Shown in pieces: positions 56,701-64,000 of a stretch of DNA of 64,000 bases. This stretch comes from Candidatus Lumbricidiphila eiseniae (GTDB lineage: Bacteria; Actinomycetota; Actinomycetes; Actinomycetales; Microbacteriaceae): the NCBI GenBank assembly GCA_002529645.1, contig NAEP01000050.1:33601-97600 (forward strand). The letters are read 5' to 3'. Made by a program: the position numbers and the translations under genes. The notes under the pieces were generated by a model, which saw nothing but the letters and a program-made list of their open reading frames with translations, searched no databases and was not told where the DNA came from. Within the stretch, counting starts at the first letter, position 1, and the number at the start of each line of letters is the position of its first letter.

Positions 56701-57185
56701 CCGGCGACCGCCTTGGCAAAAATGGGGAAACCGATGCTCTCCGCGTGCGATAAGAGCTCGTCAACATCACGCGAAGGTGGACTCGATTTCAAAACCGGTA
56801 CGCCCGCGGCGATTGCCCGCTCTTTTGCCGTGACCTTGTTGCCCGCGAGCTCAAGCACCGCGGTGGACGGTCCGATAAACGTGACCCCCGCGTCTGCTGC
56901 TGCCTGCGCCAGCTCCGGGTTTTCTGACAGAAACCCGTATCCGGGGTAGATCGCATCGGCACCCGAGGCTCGTGCCACTCGAATAATTTCCGCAACATCC
57001 AGGTAGGCACGCACCGGATGGCCCGGCTCACCAATCTGATAGGCCTCGTCGGCTTTGAGCCTGTGCAGCGAATTGCGATCCTCAAACGGGTAAACTGCCA
57101 CGGTTTTGGCGCCGAGTTCAACGGCAGCACGAAACGCACGAATGGCGATTTCGCCGCGATTAGCGACCAGGATCTTCTGGAACAT
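53781..57185 (-). CDS. pyc: Pyruvate carboxylase
   Basis: 1134 aa anaplerotic enzyme making oxaloacetate from pyruvate and bicarbonate. Biotin carboxylase/ATP-grasp domain to ~450 (KILVANRGEIAIRAFRAAVE; KAVAGGGGRGMRR), carboxyltransferase ~530-1000 (DTTFRDAHQSLLATRVRTRD), and C-terminal biotinyl domain with SIEAMKMEAAI near residue 1100. ATG at 57185 with AAGG upstream replaces the tracked GTG two codons earlier. Monocistronic, divergent from the ParA-like gene. Confidence 0.97.
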   Translation of the reverse strand: MFQKILVANRGEIAIRAFRAAVELGAKTVAVYPFEDRNSLHRLKADEAYQIGEPGHPVRAYLDVAEIIRVARASGADAIYPGYGFLSENPELAQAAADAGVTFIGPSTAVLELAGNKVTAKERAIAAGVPVLKSSPPSRDVDELLSHAESIGFPIFAKAVAGGGGRGMRRVNTLTELRPALTEAMREAESAFGDPTMFLEQAVLRPRHIEVQVLADASGNTVHLFERDCSVQRRHQKVIEIAPAPNLSQTVRESLYRDAIAFATSLNYVNAGTVEFLLDTAGERAGQHVFIEMNPRIQVEHTVTEEITDVDLVVAQIRIAAGQTLPELGLAQSDIVLHGAALQCRITTEDPTAGFRPDTGRITTYRSPGGAGIRLDGGTINPGAQISPYFDSMLAKLTCRGRDYLTAVARAKRALAEFRIRGVATNIPFLQSVLDDSSFVAGDLSTSFIDERPELVRSHGSKDRGTKILNWLADVTVNQPNGPAPIHTVPVTKLPPLDTAAAAPAGSRERLRELGPSGFAHALRAQTPLAVTDTTFRDAHQSLLATRVRTRDLVLVGPHVARMTPQLLSLEAWGGATYDVALRFLGEDPWDRLAALREAVPNIALQMLLRGRNTVGYTPYPTEVTDAFIAEAAATGVDIFRIFDALNDVSQMRPAIDAVLATGVSVAEVALCYTADLLDPAETLYTLDYYLRLADEIVGAGAHILAIKDMAGLLRPAAAATLVTALRSRFDVPVHLHTHDTAGGQLATLLAASQAGVDAVDVASAPMSGTTSQPSASALIAALVHTERDPGVSLSAIAELEPYWEAVRRMYRPFESGLPSPTGRVYHHEIPGGQLSNLRQQAIALGLADDFELIEDMYAAANNILGRIPKVTPSSKVVGDLALYLAAVRADPADFAAHPQKYDVPDSVIGFLSGELGELPGGWPEPFRTKALAGRTARVAVEELTVDQRRALVADSRSRRAVLNTLLFPAPTRQFEQSRELFGDLSVLDTRDYLYGLQPGTEHVVEIAPGVLLYVALEAVGEADDRGMRTVMTTLNGQLRPVFVRDRSIRVEGRVVEKADASQPGQVAAPFSGVVTLRVMAGEPVVAGQSVASIEAMKMEAAITSPISGVVERIAVPRTQQVEAGDLLVVVRTV

Positions 57186-57259
57186 GCACACCTTTCGGGG
57201 AGGTAGCTGAGAGGCCGGGGTCTAGGCAACGCTGCCCCACTAACGGTAACGTACTCTTC

Positions 57260-58402
57260 GTGCACGTTCTCTCGGTCAGTTCACTCAAGGGCGGCGTTGG
57301 TAAAACCACCGTCACACTCGGCTTGGCATCTGCTGCCTTCTCGCGAGGCATCCGAACCCTCGTTGTTGACCTTGATCCGCAGGCGGATGTCTCGACCGGG
57401 CTAGACATTCTCTCGGCCGACCACCTCACCGTCGCAGACGTGCTGGAGTCGCCGCGACCACGCGTCGTGCGCTCTGCGATCGTGCCGAGCGGGTGGACAC
57501 ACACCAATCCTTCATCGACGATCGATGTCATGGTGGGCAGTCCTTCGGCGATCAACTTCGATGGCCCGCATCCTTCGATCCGCGATATTTGGAAGCTGGA
57601 AGAAGCGCTCGCCTACGTGGAGGCCGACTATGACCTCGTGCTTGTTGACTGTGCGCCATCCCTGAACGCCCTCACCCGTACCGCGTGGGCCGCGAGTGAT
57701 CGGGTCATCGTGGTGACGGAACCGGGACTATTCTCGGTCGCTGCAGCCGACCGCGCACTGCGCGCAATCGAGGAGATCCGGCGGGGATTGTCATCGCGGC
57801 TGCAGCCGTTGGGCATCGTGGTGAACCGGGCGCGAGTGCAGTCACTGGAACACCAGTTTCGCATTAAGGAACTGCGCGACATGTTTGGGCCACTCGTGCT
57901 CACCCCGCAGCTGCCGGAGCGCACCTCGCTACAACAGGCACAGGGGGCAGCAAAACCCTTGCACATGTGGCCGGGTGAAAGCGCCGAGGAGATGGCGCGG
58001 CACTTTGATCATCTGTTGGAACGTGTGGTGCGAGCCGGTCGGATCCCGGAAAATGGGAGCGGACCGCGGATCGCGCTAGACCCGGACACAGGCTCCGAAC
58101 AGTCGGTAGGAGAGCGTGAACCGCGTGAGCCTGACACCGCGAGCGATTCGCTGTCGGCGGCCCTGCCCACGACGCACACCACATCCCTGGTGACACCCGG
58201 TCTCACGTACCCAACAGCTCCTGCCTTTGAGGTGCATCGTCGCGACCAGAGCAGTGGTACCTCCGATGTGACGCTGGCAGCCGACTACACCACACAGACC
58301 AGCTTCGGCGTGACCTCGGTCAGCTCAACCGCAACACCCAACGCCACAGAGCCCTCCGACGGACCGCAACCAGGCCCATTCCGCCCGCGTTATCGTTCGT
58401 AG
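57260..58402 (+). CDS. ParA/MinD-family ATPase
   Basis: 380 aa. The deviant Walker A is SLKGGVGKTTVTLGLASAAF at residues 8-27; VVDLDPQAD and LVLVDCAPSLNAL give the other ATPase motifs. After ~265 the C-terminus is a low-complexity polar tail. No parB partner is adjacent, so this is an orphan ParA, possibly positioning a protein rather than DNA. GTG start. The TTCTCTCGGTCAG context shows no strong Shine-Dalgarno. Confidence 0.9.
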   Translation: MHVLSVSSLKGGVGKTTVTLGLASAAFSRGIRTLVVDLDPQADVSTGLDILSADHLTVADVLESPRPRVVRSAIVPSGWTHTNPSSTIDVMVGSPSAINFDGPHPSIRDIWKLEEALAYVEADYDLVLVDCAPSLNALTRTAWAASDRVIVVTEPGLFSVAAADRALRAIEEIRRGLSSRLQPLGIVVNRARVQSLEHQFRIKELRDMFGPLVLTPQLPERTSLQQAQGAAKPLHMWPGESAEEMARHFDHLLERVVRAGRIPENGSGPRIALDPDTGSEQSVGEREPREPDTASDSLSAALPTTHTTSLVTPGLTYPTAPAFEVHRRDQSSGTSDVTLAADYTTQTSFGVTSVSSTATPNATEPSDGPQPGPFRPRYRS

Positions 58403-58414
58403 CCGATCTGTGCT

Positions 58415-58489
58415 TGCGTTCTGGGAAACCCCAGGGGTTGGTGCTCATGTCGCCGTTGATCGGCTAGAAACTACCTGCGTTCTGGGAAA
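58415..58489. repeat. Short direct-repeat pair H at 61-nt pitch
   Basis: TGCGTTCTGGGAAA occurs at 58415 and 58476, exactly 61 nt apart, between convergent parA-like and merR genes. Only 14 nt match, so it could be an eroded member of the same class or chance. Confidence 0.5.
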
Positions 58490-58498
58490 ACTCTCGGT

Positions 58499-59050
58499 CT
58501 AGGAAATCTTGCGCATCTTCGCACGGCGCAGCGCAAGCTCGTCCATTGGATCTGCCGACAGTGAGTCCAGCTCAATCAGGGTACTCTCCACCTCCCGAAG
58601 CACCTTCCCGACCGCGATTCCAAACACGCCCTGGCCCCGATTTACGAGGTCGATGATTTCGGTGTCAGATGCGCAGAGATAGACACTTGCGCCGTCGCTC
58701 ATGAGGGTTGTTCCGGTGAGATCGTGAATGCCCGACTCGTGGAGTTGGGTCACGGCGGAGCGGATCTGCTGCAGCGAAATGCCCGTGTCGAGCAGCCGCT
58801 TGACAAGCTTGAGCACAATGATGTCGCGAAAGCCGTAGAGACGCTGTGATCCAGAGCCCGCTGCACCACGCACCGTCGGTTTGACCAACTCTGTGCGTGC
58901 CCAGTAGTCGAGCTGGCGGTAGCTGATGCCCGCGGCACGGGCGGCAATGGCGCCACGGTATCCGTGGGGGCCGTCGTGTATGAGCATCCCTTCAGTGAAG
59001 AGCATGTCCTGCTCGTCCGGGTTCAACGCGACCCCTTCGGATTCACTCAT
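58499..59050 (-). CDS. MerR-family regulator (Rv1830-like)
   Basis: 183 aa. HTH at ~30-75 (AAGISYRQLDYWARTELVKP; GSQRLYGFRDIIVLKLVKRL), then a C-terminal domain with SVYLCASDTEIIDLV. Matches the MerR protein encoded downstream of garA/ftsR in actinobacteria. ATG at 59050 with GAGGG upstream is chosen over the tracked 59071. Targets unknown; in mycobacteria the orthologue affects division-related genes. Confidence 0.88.
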   Translation of the reverse strand: MSESEGVALNPDEQDMLFTEGMLIHDGPHGYRGAIAARAAGISYRQLDYWARTELVKPTVRGAAGSGSQRLYGFRDIIVLKLVKRLLDTGISLQQIRSAVTQLHESGIHDLTGTTLMSDGASVYLCASDTEIIDLVNRGQGVFGIAVGKVLREVESTLIELDSLSADPMDELALRRAKMRKIS

Positions 59051-59216
59051 CGCCACCCTCATCTCGATCAAACGCCCGGCGGTTTCCTCGGGGCGGTGCT
59101 GTGACTCAACACGCTACCCGCGTGAGCCGCCGCTGTCGATGATATTCAGCGACGTGTTCCGAATATGTGAGCAAGTCTCACAAAGATTTTTGGGCGGGAA
59201 CTCCCGCACGAGCCGT

Positions 59217-59303
59217 CCAGAACCCACACACGACGGTCGGATGCCCAGCACCCCGCACCCTTCTCGATCTGAACCCCCAGAACCCACACACGACGGTCGG
59301 ATG
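59217..59303. repeat. Direct-repeat pair I, 27 nt at 60-nt pitch
   Basis: Identical copies at 59217-59243 and 59277-59303 contain AACCCACACACGACGGTCGG. The 33 nt between is unrelated to the repeat, but 24 nt of it (59253-59276) recurs with two mismatches at 61198-61221. Lies between the two merR genes, accounting for most of that gap. Confidence 0.9.
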
Positions 59304-59306
59304 GTT

Positions 59307-60086
59307 TTATCGCAGCAGCTTGCGCACCTGTGCACGCAATACCGCCGAGTGTAGGGCACTCAGGTGTGTCACCAACTCGAGCGCCCGCTCCCGCGCGGCA
59401 TCCTGATCCTGACTCGAGGAACGACTGTGGGGGGCGCTACGAATGGCACCAACAATAACATCGGCCTCACGCTCGACCGAGTGTTTTACGATGCTCAGAT
59501 GCCTCGGTTCCAGCCCGGATGCTTCGAGCCCGACAAGCGCCCGAAGCGTCACGAGCGCCTCGTGGTCGTAGAACTCGGCCGCCACGATGATCGACACGGC
59601 AATCGCGGCGTCCAAGAGCTCAGCGGAGGCACCCGCGGCGCTCAGCAGATCAGCCCGATTCAGGCGGTGCGACGGTTCAGGCACCGTAGCAGCGGTCAAG
59701 GTTGCGGGCCCCGCCGGTAGTGAGGCCGACACCGACACTGGCACCGGTGTCGGCACCGGCACCGGCACCGAGTCAGCCTCGGCCAACTGTGCCCGAATCA
59801 CCCGCAACGGCAGGTAATAATCCCGCTGAAGGGTCAACACAGTGCTGAGGCGCTCGACGTCCGCGACGGAGTATTTTCGGTACCCCGATGCCGCACGGAC
59901 GGGGAAAATCAACTCTTGTTCTTCCAGAAAACGCAGCTTTGACGGCGTAAGGTCAGGGAACTCCGACTGAAACCGGGCAAGCACCTGACCAATACTCAAC
60001 AGTCCGGTCGCGGTGGCACTCCGAGAGGACGGCAGGGATGGGTCGGGAGCAGATACCCCCCGGGCAGGCACCGCCGAGCCGACCAT
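59307..60086 (-). CDS. ftsR: MerR-family regulator FtsR-type (Rv1828-like)
   Basis: 259 aa. HTH at ~30-75 (LSIGQVLARFQSEFPDLTPS; LRFLEEQELIFPVR; YRKYSVADVERL). A Pro/Val low-complexity block (VPVPVPTPVPVSVSASLP) at ~105-130 separates it from the effector-like C-terminal domain. In Corynebacterium the orthologue (FtsR) activates ftsZ and lies next to odhI, the GarA homologue, as here. ATG shares one base with the garA stop. Confidence 0.85.
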   Translation of the reverse strand: MVGSAVPARGVSAPDPSLPSSRSATATGLLSIGQVLARFQSEFPDLTPSKLRFLEEQELIFPVRAASGYRKYSVADVERLSTVLTLQRDYYLPLRVIRAQLAEADSVPVPVPTPVPVSVSASLPAGPATLTAATVPEPSHRLNRADLLSAAGASAELLDAAIAVSIIVAAEFYDHEALVTLRALVGLEASGLEPRHLSIVKHSVEREADVIVGAIRSAPHSRSSSQDQDAARERALELVTHLSALHSAVLRAQVRKLLR

Positions 60087-60565
60087 TACGGCGTCGAAAG
60101 GACAAGATCGCGACGGGACGCGTAAAACGTCAACCGAAACTTGCCGATCTGCACCTCCGAGCCATCAACCAGCACCGCACTTTCGATGCGCGCGCCGTCA
60201 AAATAGGTGCCGTTGAGCGAGCTAAGGTCGCGCACCTCAAAGGCTGTGCCGTGCCGAAGAAACTCTGCGTGTCGCCGAGAAACCGTGACATCGTCAAGGA
60301 ATATATCGGCATCGGGGTGCCGCCCCACGAGGGTTGCATCGCTATCGAGCAAAAACCGGGCACCTGCGTTGGGGCCACGGCGGACGATGAGCAGCGCCGA
60401 ACCCGACGGCAGCGCCAGGATCGCCTCAACCTCATCAACAGCAACAGAGTGATCAATGGAGGCCAGCTGCGACCCCGTCTCGCGACTAAACCCGACCGTC
60501 GTGTCTTTCTCACCGATGACAGCATTCAGTGCAGTGTGTGTGGATTCAGATCCCTGCATCGGCAC
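60086..60565 (-). CDS. garA: FHA-domain protein GarA/OdhI
   Basis: 159 aa. The phospho-switch motif KDTTVGF lies near residue 20, and an FHA domain spans ~65-140 (LVGRHPDADIFLDDVTVSRR; DLSSLNGTYFDGARI). In mycobacteria and corynebacteria the unphosphorylated form inhibits 2-oxoglutarate dehydrogenase; PknB/PknG-type kinases phosphorylate the TT motif, making FHA bind its own tail. The kinase here could be PknL or another. First gene of garA-ftsR. Confidence 0.93.
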   Translation of the reverse strand: MPMQGSESTHTALNAVIGEKDTTVGFSRETGSQLASIDHSVAVDEVEAILALPSGSALLIVRRGPNAGARFLLDSDATLVGRHPDADIFLDDVTVSRRHAEFLRHGTAFEVRDLSSLNGTYFDGARIESAVLVDGSEVQIGKFRLTFYASRRDLVLSTP

Positions 60566-60725
60566 CCCTCTGGTGGATGTTCCGTCGTGTTAAACCGGCG
60601 CCCGATCACATCGGGTCACGGCAGTCAGGTCGGTGGGCAATACCTGCTGCCCACGGCTTCGGCGTTGTCAGTCTCAAGCCTAACCGACGATGACGACTCA
60701 GTGAAAACTCTCGTGTTCAAGTTTG

Positions 60726-60817
60726 AAATGCGCCCGTGTTCAGGTCTGAAGTGCATCGCCGTGCGACGCTCGTCGCCGAACCGATCAAAGTGCGCCCGTG
60801 TTCAGGTCTGAAGTGCA
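60726..60817. repeat. Direct-repeat pair J, 27-31 nt at 61-62-nt pitch
   Basis: An exact 27-nt core beginning TGCGCCCGTGTTCAGGTCTG occurs at 60729 and 60791; similarity extends left with a 1-nt gap. A degenerate half copy (CTCGTGTTCAAGTTTGAAAT) directly precedes the first. The second copy covers the end of the transposase relic. Confidence 0.85.
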
Positions 60818-60966
60818 ACACTGTGGTGGTGTGGTTCTGTGTGGTGTTGGTAGATTTGGGCTGGTGTTGCCTGGCCGAGGCATTTTTGGGGCTGGTTGTT
60901 GTTCTCGGTGATGACCTCCTGGAGTTCCTGTCGGTTACGGTTCAAAAGTCGGTGCGTGTGGGCAGG
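60802..60966 (-). pseudogene. Transposase C-terminal relic, IS30-like
   Basis: Minus-strand reading has RNRQELQEVITENNNQPQKC then LGQATPAQIYQ and ends SVALQT. The N-x-x-P-x-x-x-LG-x-x-TPA pattern is the usual C-terminal stretch of rve-type transposases, especially IS30. Only ~50 codons survive. Family choice is by motif memory. Confidence 0.5.
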
Positions 60967-61197
60967 TAGCGTCTATTCATCGTCATAGACCGCCGCATAT
61001 GAGACGGTAAAGAATCGAAGATCGCCTGCCGGGCAGCGGTCCCGCACTCAAAGGTGAGGGCGTCTGTTTTCCGGACGAAAATGAACCGGGTCACTTGTTC
61101 TGCCCTGGCGTGGATCCCAGCACTCACCGACCTTGCTTTGATAGAGCCTGCTTCCCAGCACCCGAATAAGCGATCTGTCGAACAGACCATCCGGCAT

Positions 61198-61221
61198 CCG
61201 CACTCTTCTCGGTCTGAACCC
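61198..61221. repeat. Dispersed 24-nt sequence matching the spacer of locus I
   Basis: CCGCAC[T/C]CTTCTCG[G/A]TCTGAACCC: 22 of 24 positions match 59253-59276. Confidence 0.75.
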
Positions 61222-61234
61222 GCTCAACCTCACG

Positions 61235-61253
61235 ACACATGACCGTCATGTGT
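61235..61253. promoter_or_regulatory. 19-bp perfect palindrome, candidate operator
   Basis: ACACATGAC-C-GTCATGTGT reads the same on both strands apart from the centre. It lies 114 nt upstream of the protease-like gene. No regulator gene is adjacent. Confidence 0.5.
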
Positions 61254-61260
61254 ACCCATA

Positions 61261-61312
61261 GAAGCGCAACCCTTGATTCAGTGAACATGAACAACACCAA
61301 GCGTTGCGCTTC
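61261..61312. repeat. Inverted repeat with 10-bp arms and 32-nt loop
   Basis: GAAGCGCAAC (61261-61270) is complementary to GTTGCGCTTC (61303-61312). Could be the ends of a vanished small element or an RNA hairpin in the leader of the next gene. Confidence 0.5.
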
Positions 61313-61366
61313 CGTCTTGAACACGGGGCTGCAAGCTTCATGAGGATCCTCTGAGAGGATAGACGG

Positions 61367-61867
61367 ATGAGCCGCCCCCATTTAAGCACCACCGCAGGCT
61401 GGCGAGAATGGGTCGCGCTCACCAATGCGGGTGTTCCGTGGGTGAAAGCGAAACTCGACACCGGTGCCCGCAGCTCTGCCCTACACGCGTTCGATGTCGA
61501 AGAGTATGCCGTTGACGGTGCCGTATGGGTGCGCTTCGGCATCCGACCGTGGCAAGACTCAGAAGAGGATGCCAGAATCGTTGAGCTGCCCGTTCACGAT
61601 CGGAGAATCATCCGCAGTTCATCCGGTCACACCATGGAACGCATCGTTGTCCTGCTCGATATCACCCTGCTCGGGCGGAACATCACCGCGGAGGTGTCAC
61701 TGAGCAACCGAGACGAGATGGGATTTCGCATGCTCATCGGTCGAGAAGCACTGCGACAGGGTTTCCTCGTCGACTCATCAGTATCTTTTCTCGGTGGCCG
61801 TGCACCCCGCAGAGTGCGACGAACAAACCGCGGGAAAACACAGCACACAGACCTGGAGCGAGTGTAG
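61367..61867 (+). CDS. RimK-associated retropepsin-like protease (ATP-dependent zinc protease family, RimB-like)
   Basis: 166 aa. WVKAKLDTGARSSALHAFDV gives the DTGA aspartic motif, and MLIGREALRQGFLVD closes the domain, matching the family usually encoded with RimK ligases. Characterised members process peptides or poly-glutamate tails added by RimK. No rimK follows here, as the downstream DNA is repeats and IS remnants, so the partner may have been lost or lies elsewhere. A basic C-terminal tail (RAPRRVRRTNRGK) is normal. Confidence 0.85.
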   Translation: MSRPHLSTTAGWREWVALTNAGVPWVKAKLDTGARSSALHAFDVEEYAVDGAVWVRFGIRPWQDSEEDARIVELPVHDRRIIRSSSGHTMERIVVLLDITLLGRNITAEVSLSNRDEMGFRMLIGREALRQGFLVDSSVSFLGGRAPRRVRRTNRGKTQHTDLERV

Positions 61868-62206
61868 CGGAACGCTCCACAGAAGAGCGATCCGCCGGAG
61901 ACGATCTGCCGCCCTCTCCACGCGGGTAATTCACACGCGCGAAGGTCTCAGGCGAGCCCCCGCGGCCACCATCACGCGCTTGACGGATAATTCACACGCG
62001 CGAAGGTCTCAGAGAAGACCTCCTCGCGATCATGAACCTCATCAAGGGCAATTCACACGCGCGAGGGTCTCAGAACCATGGAGGTTATACCCGCTCAGCG
62101 TGAGACAGAAGGGCCTCCTGGTTGTGTGATCCGATTGTTGGATAGCTCCATTCCGCAGGAAGTGTTCACCTGTCAGCGAATCAACGATCGATTCCTGAAA
62201 CAACGC
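61868..62206. other. Gap between protease-like gene and IS21 element
   Basis: Holds the three-copy repeat array K (61924-62073). The remaining ~130 nt up to the IS end shows no ORF, hairpin or promoter I can support. Confidence 0.6.
61924..62073. repeat. Three-copy CRISPR-like array K: 28-nt repeats, 33-nt spacers
   Basis: Repeats at 61924, 61985 and 62046 (exact 61-nt pitch) share AATTCACACGCGCGA then GGTCTCAG, preceded by GGRY; copies 1 and 2 differ only in that GGRY prefix. The two 33-nt intervals have no similarity to each other. Geometry equals type I-E arrays, but the repeat lacks their GC palindrome and no leader or cas gene is visible, so I call it a repeat, not a CRISPR. Confidence 0.9.
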
Positions 62207-62933
62207 TGTTGACGTCGAAGTAGAGCGGGCCCCTTTGTGCTGAACTGGGGCGGACCCTTCTTTGGCTGTTGGGTTTAGTTATTCTTGTTCTGCTTGATGG
62301 GGTCGCGGCGGCCGTGGGTGCGGTAGGAATCTCTGGTGAGGGTGAGAACTTCGCGGTGGTGAACGAGGTGGTCAATCTTCGTGGACGCGACGAGGTCGTT
62401 GCTGAAGGTTTCGCCTCAGCGGCTGGAGGGCAGGTTGGTGGTGACCATGATCAAGCTCTGTTCGTAGCGGGATGCGAGGAGTTGGAAGAATAGGTTCGCG
62501 GTGTCCTGGTTGAACGGAATGTAGCCGATCTCGTCGATGATGAGTTTGCAGTGGCGGGTTTTCCTCAGTTCCGCCTCGAGTTGTCCTTGGTGGTGAACTA
62601 CTGTGAGGCGCACGATCCAGTTGTTTACGGTGTCGAACACAACGGAGTGGCCGACGTGGGTAGCCTTGATGCCGAGACCAATCGCCGAATGGGTTTTCCG
62701 ATTCCGGGAGGGCCGAGCAGGATCACGTTCTCTGCTTTCGTGACGAACCTCGAGGTCGCCAGGTGCGCGAGGAGGTTCTTGCGCAGGCTTGGTAGGTGGT
62801 CAAGGTTGAAGTCCTCGAGCGTCTTGATCGATGGGAAGTGCGCGGTTCGGATCCTCATCGTCGTGCTCGCGGACTCGCGGTCCGCGAGCTGGCATTCTGG
62901 GGCCGCGGCAAGGTATTTCCTCGTGTGCCCAGT

Positions 62934-63005
62934 TCTCGTCCCTTGCCCGGTCGGCGAGGTCCAGCTCGTCCGCGAGATCCGTGTGCACTGCGGGTCTCGT
63001 CCCTT
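62934..63005. repeat. Degenerate repeat pair L at 61-nt pitch inside istB
   Basis: TCTCGTCCCTT begins at 62934 and 62995, 61 nt apart, and CGTGTGC precedes both with small gaps. One copy is genuine istB (RDENWAHEE); the other is an eroded duplicate just before the surface-gene fragment. Confidence 0.6.
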
Positions 63006-63334
63006 AACGCGGATCGTTCTTCTACTGCAAACACAGCAGGTACTGCGGCGGGGGTTGGGGTGTCGGCGTCGGGGGCTGCTGCGGTGACGGTGGCGTCCTC
63101 GGATGCGGCGACTACCTCGAGTGCGAATGCGTCGGCGTCGGCGTCGGCGGGGGCGGATTCTCGTGCGAACGCGGCGGCGGTCGGGGCGGCGAACGCGGAT
63201 CGTTCGTCGGTGGCGTCGGCGGCGGGGTCAGCGTCCGCGGTCGCGGCGGCGCGGGCGGCGGCGAGCTCGGTGGCGTCGTCGGATGCGTCTAGTACTTCTT
63301 CTACGGTGGCGAGCGCGGCGGTGTTCGCGGCGGC
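63006..63334 (+). other. Fragment of a surface-protein stalk gene inserted in istB
   Basis: Plus-strand reading is Ala/Ser-rich with two 62-codon repeats, each starting NADRSS and containing VASSDA and TSS. Bases 63104-63180 are an exact inverted copy of 63924-64000 in the LAxTG protein gene, same reading frame. Neither a start nor a stop belongs to it, so it is captured coding DNA, not a gene. Confidence 0.85.
63104..63180. repeat. 77-nt inverted repeat, inner copy (partner 63924-64000)
   Basis: Perfect complement of the last 77 nt of the window; the match stops at CATATG on the inner side of the partner and may extend past the window on the other. About 740 nt separate the copies. Confidence 0.9.
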
Positions 63335-63580
63335 TGCCCGGTCGGCGAGGTCTTCCCAGAGTCGCTCGATCGTGGGGCTCTTCGACGCGCGGGCCAAGCA
63401 GGCGAGTTTCGACGCGACCTGCTCGCTCGTCTTCGAAATCGGTGCGTCAACGGTGCTGCTTCGTGGGGTCATCGTGTTTGAGAATCCCCGTCCGGTCAAG
63501 CACCGTGAGCTCCATCGTCCGGGCCAGGATCGGACGAACTTTCTGCTGGTTCGTCCACTCGCTCAATATTCTGGCTGATA

Positions 63581-63667
63581 TCAAGATCCCGCACAATCTG
63601 CGTTAATCAGAACACGTTCCGAGCAATACAACCGGCGAATCTCTGCCCGCGTATCCACTGAAATCAC
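63581..63667 (-). pseudogene. istA: istA (IS21 transposase) N-terminal fragment
   Basis: GTG at 63667 (or 63676) starts ISVDTRAEIRRLYCSERV, the usual opening of IstA before its helix-turn-helix; after ~20 codons homology ends and a stop follows. The catalytic domain is absent. 63473-63580 contains no recognisable istA sequence. Confidence 0.75.
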
Positions 63668-63732
63668 CCCTCTCACCTGAACCAGTGGGAACCATCCAGA
63701 CTCAGTGTTACAGGGGTCGATCCACGTCGGTG

Positions 63733-64000
63733 TTAACAAATGTCCCTGGAGATGGCAGCTGGGCACTCATCGCCATCTAATATCAGGGTGTCCACCCGAA
63801 CAGGTTCAGCCTCGCATTGGGTTTGACGACGGTGCAGCAGCAGTGTCAGTCCTGCGAGCAGGAATATTGTCACAGCTCTGAGCGGAATGGTCGGAGTGAC
63901 ACCAGTCCCCGCAAGCTCATATGCCGCCGCCGCGTTCGCACGAGAATCCGCCCCCGCCGACGCCGACGCCGACGCATTCGCACTCGAGGTAGTCGCCGCA
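63733..64000 (-). CDS. Cell-wall-anchored surface protein, C-terminus (partial, runs off right edge)
   Basis: About 88 C-terminal residues: an Ala/Ser stalk (TTSSANASASASAGADSRAN), sorting signal LAGTG, a hydrophobic helix (IPLRAVTIFLLAGLTLLLH) and RRQ. This is the LAxTG form used by sortases of high-GC Gram-positives, so the protein is probably attached to peptidoglycan. The tail after RRQ is unusually long (~28 residues with two Cys), and its stop codon lies in the IS21 terminus, so the native end was probably altered. Missed by the ORF track because its start lies outside. Confidence 0.85.
   Translation of the reverse strand, partial: AATTSSANASASASAGADSRANAAAAYELAGTGVTPTIPLRAVTIFLLAGLTLLLHRRQTQCEAEPVRVDTLILDGDECPAAISRDIC

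What the first reader, a model, noticed from the sequence alone, without database searches (positions are those of the whole stretch)
62207..63738. IS21 element that captured a piece of the neighbouring surface-protein gene
istB is split by 391 bp flanked by 18-bp direct repeats of istB itself. The insert is a stalk fragment of an LAxTG protein in the opposite direction, 77 nt of which is identical to the gene at the window edge. This creates a 77-bp perfect inverted repeat about 740 bp apart, able to drive inversion or cruciform formation and hence phase or antigenic variation of the surface gene's 3' end. Perfect identity argues for a recent event or ongoing gene conversion.
Basis: partly seen in the sequence, partly recalled or inferred. 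Interest (0 to 1): 0.75.

Follow-up and report, generated by a model that had tools for sequence, protein, structure and literature searches.

The report
Stray CRISPR insertion inside dead IS21
The odd direct repeat in this dead transposon gene is the scar of a misplaced CRISPR memory insertion, later broken by a copied piece of surface-protein gene, and the same genome carries at least 70 similar scars; the proposed DNA-flipping switch beside it is mostly an artefact of where the assembled sequence stops.

Summary
The IS21 relic is real (62206-63738); empty paralogous sites fix its ends. istB is split and a surface-protein stalk fragment lies in it. Two central details change.

First, the window end is the end of contig C72. 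Of 100 unmasked contig ends, 24 have a longest exact terminal match of exactly 77 nt, so "77 bp" is the assembler's k-mer. The true shared repeat is at least 114 bp, and perfect stalk repeats up to 411 bp are common here. Nothing supports an inversion switch.

Second, "391 bp between 18-bp repeats" is a 28-bp target duplication around a 33-bp spacer: an exact 61-bp insertion relative to intact istB. A 330-bp stalk unit later interrupted the second repeat copy.

28+33 is type I-E spacer-integration geometry. The genome has a complete I-E system; 59 sampled congeners lack its Cas2. In 1.28 Mb (45%) of this genome I found 73 such sites outside the array, against none in 400 kb of congeners and none outside the array in 250 kb of E. 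coli. Targets resemble the canonical repeat; 24 of 83 ectopic spacers have a second chromosomal copy, against 0 of 64 canonical ones.

Best reading: natural, genome-wide off-target Cas1-Cas2 integration. The kind is known; this density I found nowhere reported.

The parts
62206..63738 (-). Decayed IS21-like element
   Evidence: Flanks 62090-62205 and 63739-63923 adjoin in paralogous loci; IstA/IstB similarity
62260..62961 (-). istB, 3' part (frameshifted relic)
   Evidence: 81% DNA identity to intact istB on C56 over 62295-62961; tblastx
62934..62961 (.). 28-bp target duplication, intact copy
62962..62994 (.). 33-bp ectopic spacer, source unknown
62995..63005 (.). Second copy of the 28-bp repeat, first 11 bp
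63006..63335 (+). 330-bp (110-codon) surface-protein stalk fragment interrupting the second repeat copy
   Evidence: 78% to C34 stalk over the whole length; unit length equals the C48 stalk period
63336..63352 (.). Second copy of the 28-bp repeat, last 17 bp
63336..63472 (-). istB, 5' part
   Evidence: Alignment to C56 istB
63452..63667 (-). istA fragments after an internal deletion
   Evidence: tblastx to IstA of L155 and L029
63067..63180 (+).
63924..64000 (-). Right arm, cut at the contig end after 77 nt (assembly k-mer)
63733..64000 (-). 3' end of a surface-protein gene with LAGTG anchor; continues in frame on contig C4
61924..62073 (.). Second ectopic mini-array: three 28-bp repeats (61924-61951, 61985-62012, 62046-62073) and two 33-bp spacers
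   Evidence: spacer 1 is 34/34 identical to C3:13030-13063
59217..59303 (.). Ectopic duplication, 27-bp repeat, period 60
60729..60817 (.). Ectopic duplication, 27-bp repeat, period 62

Best explanation
The locus is layered. (1) An IS21-like element inserted long ago downstream of a sortase-anchored surface-protein gene and decayed. (2) The host's type I-E Cas1-Cas2 integrase then inserted a 33-bp spacer off target into istB, duplicating 28 bp of istB on either side, as it does to a repeat in the canonical array. (3) Later a 330-bp stalk unit, copied from a surface-protein paralogue by an unknown repair or copying route, landed inside the second repeat copy. The insertions in steps 1-3 are shown by anatomy and comparison; that Cas1-Cas2 was the agent of step 2 is inferred, and the mechanism of step 3 is unknown. 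The same 28+33 scar occurs at 73 sites in the 45% of the genome examined, so the istB scar is one of many natural off-target CRISPR integrations. The 77-bp inverted repeat is an assembly boundary inside a longer, ordinary stalk repeat.
For: Exact 61-bp insertion (28 duplicated + 33 new) in istB relative to two intact copies; the only split 28-mer at period 61 in 1.28 Mb. Repeat spectrum of this genome outside the array: 24, 53 and 7 exact repeats at periods 60, 61 and 62, against 0-6 at every other period from 30 to 130 except 126, which is the 42-codon propeller repeat. Mismatch-tolerant counts at 60-62 are 105 (up to 2 mismatches) and 152 (up to 4), against 0-4 at the other periods tested. 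Repeat length peaks at 28 and spacer length at 33. None at 60-62 in 400 kb from five congeners; none outside the array in 250 kb of E. coli K-12. Complete I-E system with Cas1e, Cas2, Cas3e, Cas5e, Cas6e, Cas7e, Cas8e, Cas11e and a 67-repeat array of period 61; its Cas2 is absent from 59 other congeners. Exact 28-mer targets match the canonical repeat at 11.7 of 28 positions against 8.8 (sd 2.1) for random 28-mers. 24 of 83 ectopic spacers have a second chromosomal copy, against 42 of 500 random 33-mers (Fisher p about 1e-6) and 0 of 64 canonical spacers. Sites avoid long reading frames: 14% against 71% of random positions.
Against: The istB spacer has no identified source. No clear PAM appears beside ten self-matching protospacers. 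55% of the genome was not examined. The assembly is short-read and reads were not available. There are no expression or acquisition data. The E. coli comparison is only 250 kb, and no other I-E genome was surveyed beyond short stretches.
Confidence: 0.87

Rival explanations
1. Phase or antigenic variation: the inverted stalk repeats recombine and flip the 743-bp segment holding the anchor-coding 3' end.
For: A perfect inverted repeat of at least 77 nt, 114 nt if C4 is the continuation, lies close to a surface gene; RecA-dependent exchange over about 100 bp is possible in principle.
Against: The 77 nt is set by the contig end. As assembled the gene reads in frame into its anchor. No recombinase was recognised nearby. 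Long perfect repeats are general to the stalk family. No isomer was observed.
Confidence: 0.05
2. Assembly chimera: the stalk fragment in istB was joined wrongly by a short-read assembler at a stalk repeat.
For: Stalk repeats break the assembly at many contig ends; C72 and C4 meet at a repeat node.
Against: The junctions at 63005/63006 and 63335/63336 are unique and split one 28-mer exactly; both istB halves are in register with intact istB. The 28+33 scar is independent of the stalk and much shorter than k-dependent repeats.
Confidence: 0.07
3. The 61-bp dispersed duplications come from a non-CRISPR process: a tiny transposon, replication slippage or template switching.
For: The agent was not observed directly; no clear PAM.
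Against: Slippage would not fix 28 and 33. Repeats and inserts differ from site to site, so no element is copied. The spike is absent from congeners without the I-E Cas2. Targets resemble the CRISPR repeat and inserts often match other parts of the chromosome.
Confidence: 0.06

Closest known systems
Non-canonical (off-target) spacer integration by type I-E Cas1-Cas2, 'neo-CRISPR' loci (Nivala, Shipman and Church 2018; not held, cited in PMC9456107 and PMC11788318)
   Same: Spacer-sized inserts flanked by duplicated chromosomal sequence resembling the CRISPR repeat, outside the array.
   Different: PMC11788318 describes it under Cas1-Cas2 overexpression in E. coli. Here it is a natural genome with at least 73 sites in 45% of the sequence, some with several spacers. 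From memory, that paper also lists a few putative natural cases.
Canonical type I-E CRISPR array acquisition
   Same: 28-bp repeat, 33-bp spacer, 61-bp period; complete I-E cas set in the same genome.
   Different: Ectopic repeats differ from site to site, sites are dispersed and mostly hold one spacer, and self-derived spacers are common.
IS21 family (istA/istB)
   Same: IstA and IstB similarity in one element.
   Different: Decayed relic: istA mostly deleted, istB frameshifted and interrupted twice.
Invertible phase-variation cassettes
   Same: An inverted repeat flanks the 3' end of a surface-protein gene.
   Different: No recombinase recognised, no isomer, no sign of use; the repeat is a stalk unit.

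Membership tests
Off-target type I-E Cas1-Cas2 integration (neo-CRISPR) | Duplication of about 28 bp of target flanking about 33 bp of new DNA | tested here: met
   28 + 33 exactly; 61-bp insertion relative to intact istB
Off-target type I-E Cas1-Cas2 integration (neo-CRISPR) | Cas1 and Cas2 of subtype I-E in the genome | tested here: met
   Cas1e E=1.7e-117, Cas2 E=2.9e-28, effector set
Off-target type I-E Cas1-Cas2 integration (neo-CRISPR) | Target resembles the canonical repeat | tested here: met
   18 exact sites: mean 11.7/28 against 8.8 for random 28-mers; istB site alone 13/28 on the better strand
Off-target type I-E Cas1-Cas2 integration (neo-CRISPR) | Spacer traceable to a source DNA | tested here: inconclusive
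   istB spacer: none found; as a set, 24 of 83 ectopic spacers match elsewhere in the chromosome
Off-target type I-E Cas1-Cas2 integration (neo-CRISPR) | Integration depends on Cas1-Cas2 activity | not testable with these tools
   Needs an acquisition assay
Canonical CRISPR array | Repeats identical to those of the cas-adjacent array | tested here: not met
   istB repeat differs from the canonical repeat
IS21 | istA and istB in one element | tested here: met
   Relics of both
IS21 | Intact transposase genes (autonomous element) | tested here: not met
   istA internally deleted, istB in several frames
Invertible phase-variation element | Both orientations present in the population | not testable with these tools
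   No reads available
Invertible phase-variation element | Dedicated recombinase nearby | tested here: inconclusive
   None recognised by eye among frames at 57000-64000; not profiled, and the other side lies on another contig

The most novel reading that the evidence does not exclude
In this species the type I-E integrase is naturally promiscuous and acts as a standing genome-wide insertional mutator. A failed off-target integration in istB left a break whose repair copied a stalk unit in, so CRISPR adaptation would be helping to reshuffle surface-protein DNA.
Probability: 0.15. Interest if true: 0.9.

Novelty: new variant of a known kind. Interest (0 to 1): 0.72.

Why it matters
What confines CRISPR integration to the array is a long-standing question: in E. 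coli the host factor IHF does it, and Cas1-Cas2 alone integrates elsewhere in vitro (PMC10011333). A natural genome carrying, by extrapolation, some 160 dispersed scars would be a fossil record of spacer capture free of selection for immunity. It would show which targets Cas1-Cas2 accepts in vivo, and that self-derived fragments are captured often but are missing from the working array. It makes the origin of new CRISPR loci and the mutational cost of adaptation testable by sequence comparison.

Tried and rejected
Phase-variation inversion: set aside for lack of support (77 = k-mer; gene in frame as assembled). A simple 391-bp insertion with an 18-bp target duplication: rejected once the 28-bp register and the 330-bp insert were found. 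NHEJ capture of the stalk: no Ku homologue in the genome, so not favoured. Structured RNA in the region: no Rfam match. Phage origin of 18 of the spacers: no match in the phage collection. Source of the istB spacer: not found. A PAM next to self-protospacers: none evident in ten cases. Relatives carrying the istB insertion: of 60 genomes, istB matches were distant and no match covered the insert as a unit. The plasmid collection gave only ordinary istB relatives.

Full report
WHAT THE WINDOW IS. The window is bases 33601-97600 of contig C72 of a 2.85-Mb draft actinobacterial genome in 73 contigs. C72 is 97600 bp long, so the window's right edge is the contig's end. At least 59 other sampled genomes share its genus, and its family showed one genus among the relatives drawn; Brevibacterium would fit, but that is a guess.

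THE 77-BP INVERTED REPEAT. The exact 77-nt match is real, but its length is technical. I compared 100 unmasked contig ends: for 24 of them the longest exact terminal match elsewhere in the held sequence is exactly 77 nt, including C72, which dovetails with C4 by 77 nt. That is the signature of a de Bruijn assembly with k = 77. C4 continues the match to 114 nt (63067-63180). Across the overlap the window's anchor peptide (AYELAGTG...) joins in frame to a 935-aa C4 reading frame with YVTN beta-propeller repeats and an Ala/Ser-rich stalk. Perfect repeats of 411, 399, 381 and 366 nt occur within and between stalk loci, so 114 nt of identity with one neighbour does not single out a recent event.

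THE IS21 RELIC. Eight paralogous surface-gene 3' ends share a conserved downstream flank, and in them window positions 62205 and about 63739 are adjacent. This fixes the element at 62206-63738. istA survives as fragments after an internal deletion and istB falls in several frames. Two further loci, C26 and C48, share the istA remnant with the gene 3' end at 82-85% identity, so the insertion is old. A more intact relative sits on C56; its IstB is 97% identical to one in Gulosibacter macacae.

WHAT SPLITS istB. istB carries TCTCGTCCCTTGCCCGGTCGGCGAGGTC intact at 62934-62961, then 33 bp of new DNA (62962-62994), then the same 28-mer broken between its 11th and 12th base: 62995-63005, a 330-bp stalk fragment (63006-63335), and 63336-63352. 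With the 330 bp set aside, alignment with two intact istB genes shows an insertion of exactly 61 bp. A scan for such split 28-mers at period 61 across 1.28 Mb returned this site and no other. The insert is 110 codons, the same as the stalk repeat period on C48.

THE GENOME-WIDE PATTERN. 28 + 33 = 61 is type I-E CRISPR geometry. The genome has a complete I-E system: Cas1e-Cas2 at C67:46311-47491, a 67-repeat array at C67:47624-51790 with period 61, and Cas5e, Cas7e, Cas11e, Cas8e, Cas3e and Cas6e beyond it on the other strand. Outside that array I scanned 1.277 Mb for exact repeats of at least 20 nt at spacings 30-130. Periods 60, 61 and 62 gave 24, 53 and 7. Every other period gave 0-6 except 126 (78), which is the 42-codon propeller repeat. 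Filtered, these are 83 events at 73 sites on 26 contigs, repeat length peaking at 28 and spacer length at 33. Repeats and spacers differ from site to site, so no element is being copied. Allowing mismatches gives 105 and 152 events at 60-62, against 0-4 at the other spacings tested. By simple scaling 73 sites in 1.28 Mb would be about 160 in the genome.

CONTROLS. 400 kb from five congeners, whose genus otherwise lacks I-E Cas2 in 59 of 59 sampled genomes, gave none at 60-62. 250 kb of E. coli K-12, which has a I-E system, gave such repeats only in its canonical array. 745 kb from other actinobacteria gave repeats at 60-62 in four loci, three array-like and one a simple tandem repeat. The scars (about 89 bp, 28-bp repeats) are not of k-mer length and are not expected from the assembler.

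WHY CAS1-CAS2. Besides geometry and co-occurrence, the 18 sites with an exact 28-mer match the canonical repeat at 11.7 of 28 positions on average, against 8.8 (sd 2.1) for random genomic 28-mers, the strand being chosen for best match in both sets; C8, C9 and G10 are the most conserved. 24 of 83 ectopic spacers have a second copy in the chromosome, many over the full 33 nt, against 42 of 500 random 33-mers and 0 of 64 canonical spacers. Self-derived spacers in the working array would provoke self-targeting; in ectopic sites that may not be transcribed or processed they could persist (inference). Only 14% of sites lie in reading frames of 300 codons or more, against 71% of random positions, as expected if disruptive insertions are removed by selection.

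A SECOND CASE BESIDE IT. At 61924-62073, in the flank just outside the IS, three 28-bp repeats enclose two 33-bp spacers. The aligned flanks on C37, C13 and one C34 locus carry the segment once. Spacer 1 is identical over 34 nt to C3:13030-13063. Another C34 paralogue has its own mini-array in the same flank at a different register, which looks like an independent event.

WHAT IS SHOWN AND WHAT IS NOT. Shown: the anatomy, the 61-bp insertion, the genome-wide spike and its absence in the controls. Inferred: that Cas1-Cas2 made the scars, that they lack immune function, and the order of events in istB. Unknown: the source of the istB spacer and how the stalk fragment arrived. The genome has no Ku homologue, so classical NHEJ is not favoured.

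PLACE IN THE LITERATURE. Off-target integration in E. coli on Cas1-Cas2 overexpression is established (Nivala et al. 2018, not held; described in PMC11788318 and PMC9456107). In vitro, Cas1-Cas2 alone integrates outside the array and IHF confers specificity (PMC10011333); type V-C Cas1 is reported to integrate off target often (PMC13034035). I found no report of a natural genome with this density in the library searched, but most subscription papers are not held. From memory, Nivala et al. list a few putative natural cases, so the kind is known and the scale is what appears new.

Noticed in passing
C67:47574-47727 (L242:17574-17727): The CRISPR leader plus first repeat is duplicated in tandem with a unit of exactly 77 nt, equal to the assembly k-mer, so it may be an assembly artefact.
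   Followed up: no
C1:160750-161083: An ectopic mini-array with about five spacers and diverging repeats, the longest ectopic array seen outside the canonical one.
   Followed up: partly
window:12090, 43703, 45639: Three further period-60/61 duplications in the window (exact runs of 22-24 nt) that look like older ectopic integrations.
   Followed up: partly
C4, C26, C34, C35, C37, C48, C49, C56 and the window's right edge: A family of surface proteins (YVTN propellers or other N-terminal domains, Ala/Ser-rich stalks, LAGTG anchors on several) with a conserved 3' flank; their stalk repeats break the assembly at many contig ends.
   Followed up: partly
C45:23415-23450; C23:145253-145284: Two ectopic spacers resemble stalk-coding DNA of the surface-protein family.
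   Followed up: no
C56:20319-22423: IS21 element with full-length IstB 97% identical to one in Gulosibacter macacae, suggesting recent transfer.
   Followed up: no
G000 contigs C50-C55, C57-C66, C68: Short contigs read entirely as N (withheld), so they could not be surveyed.
   Followed up: no
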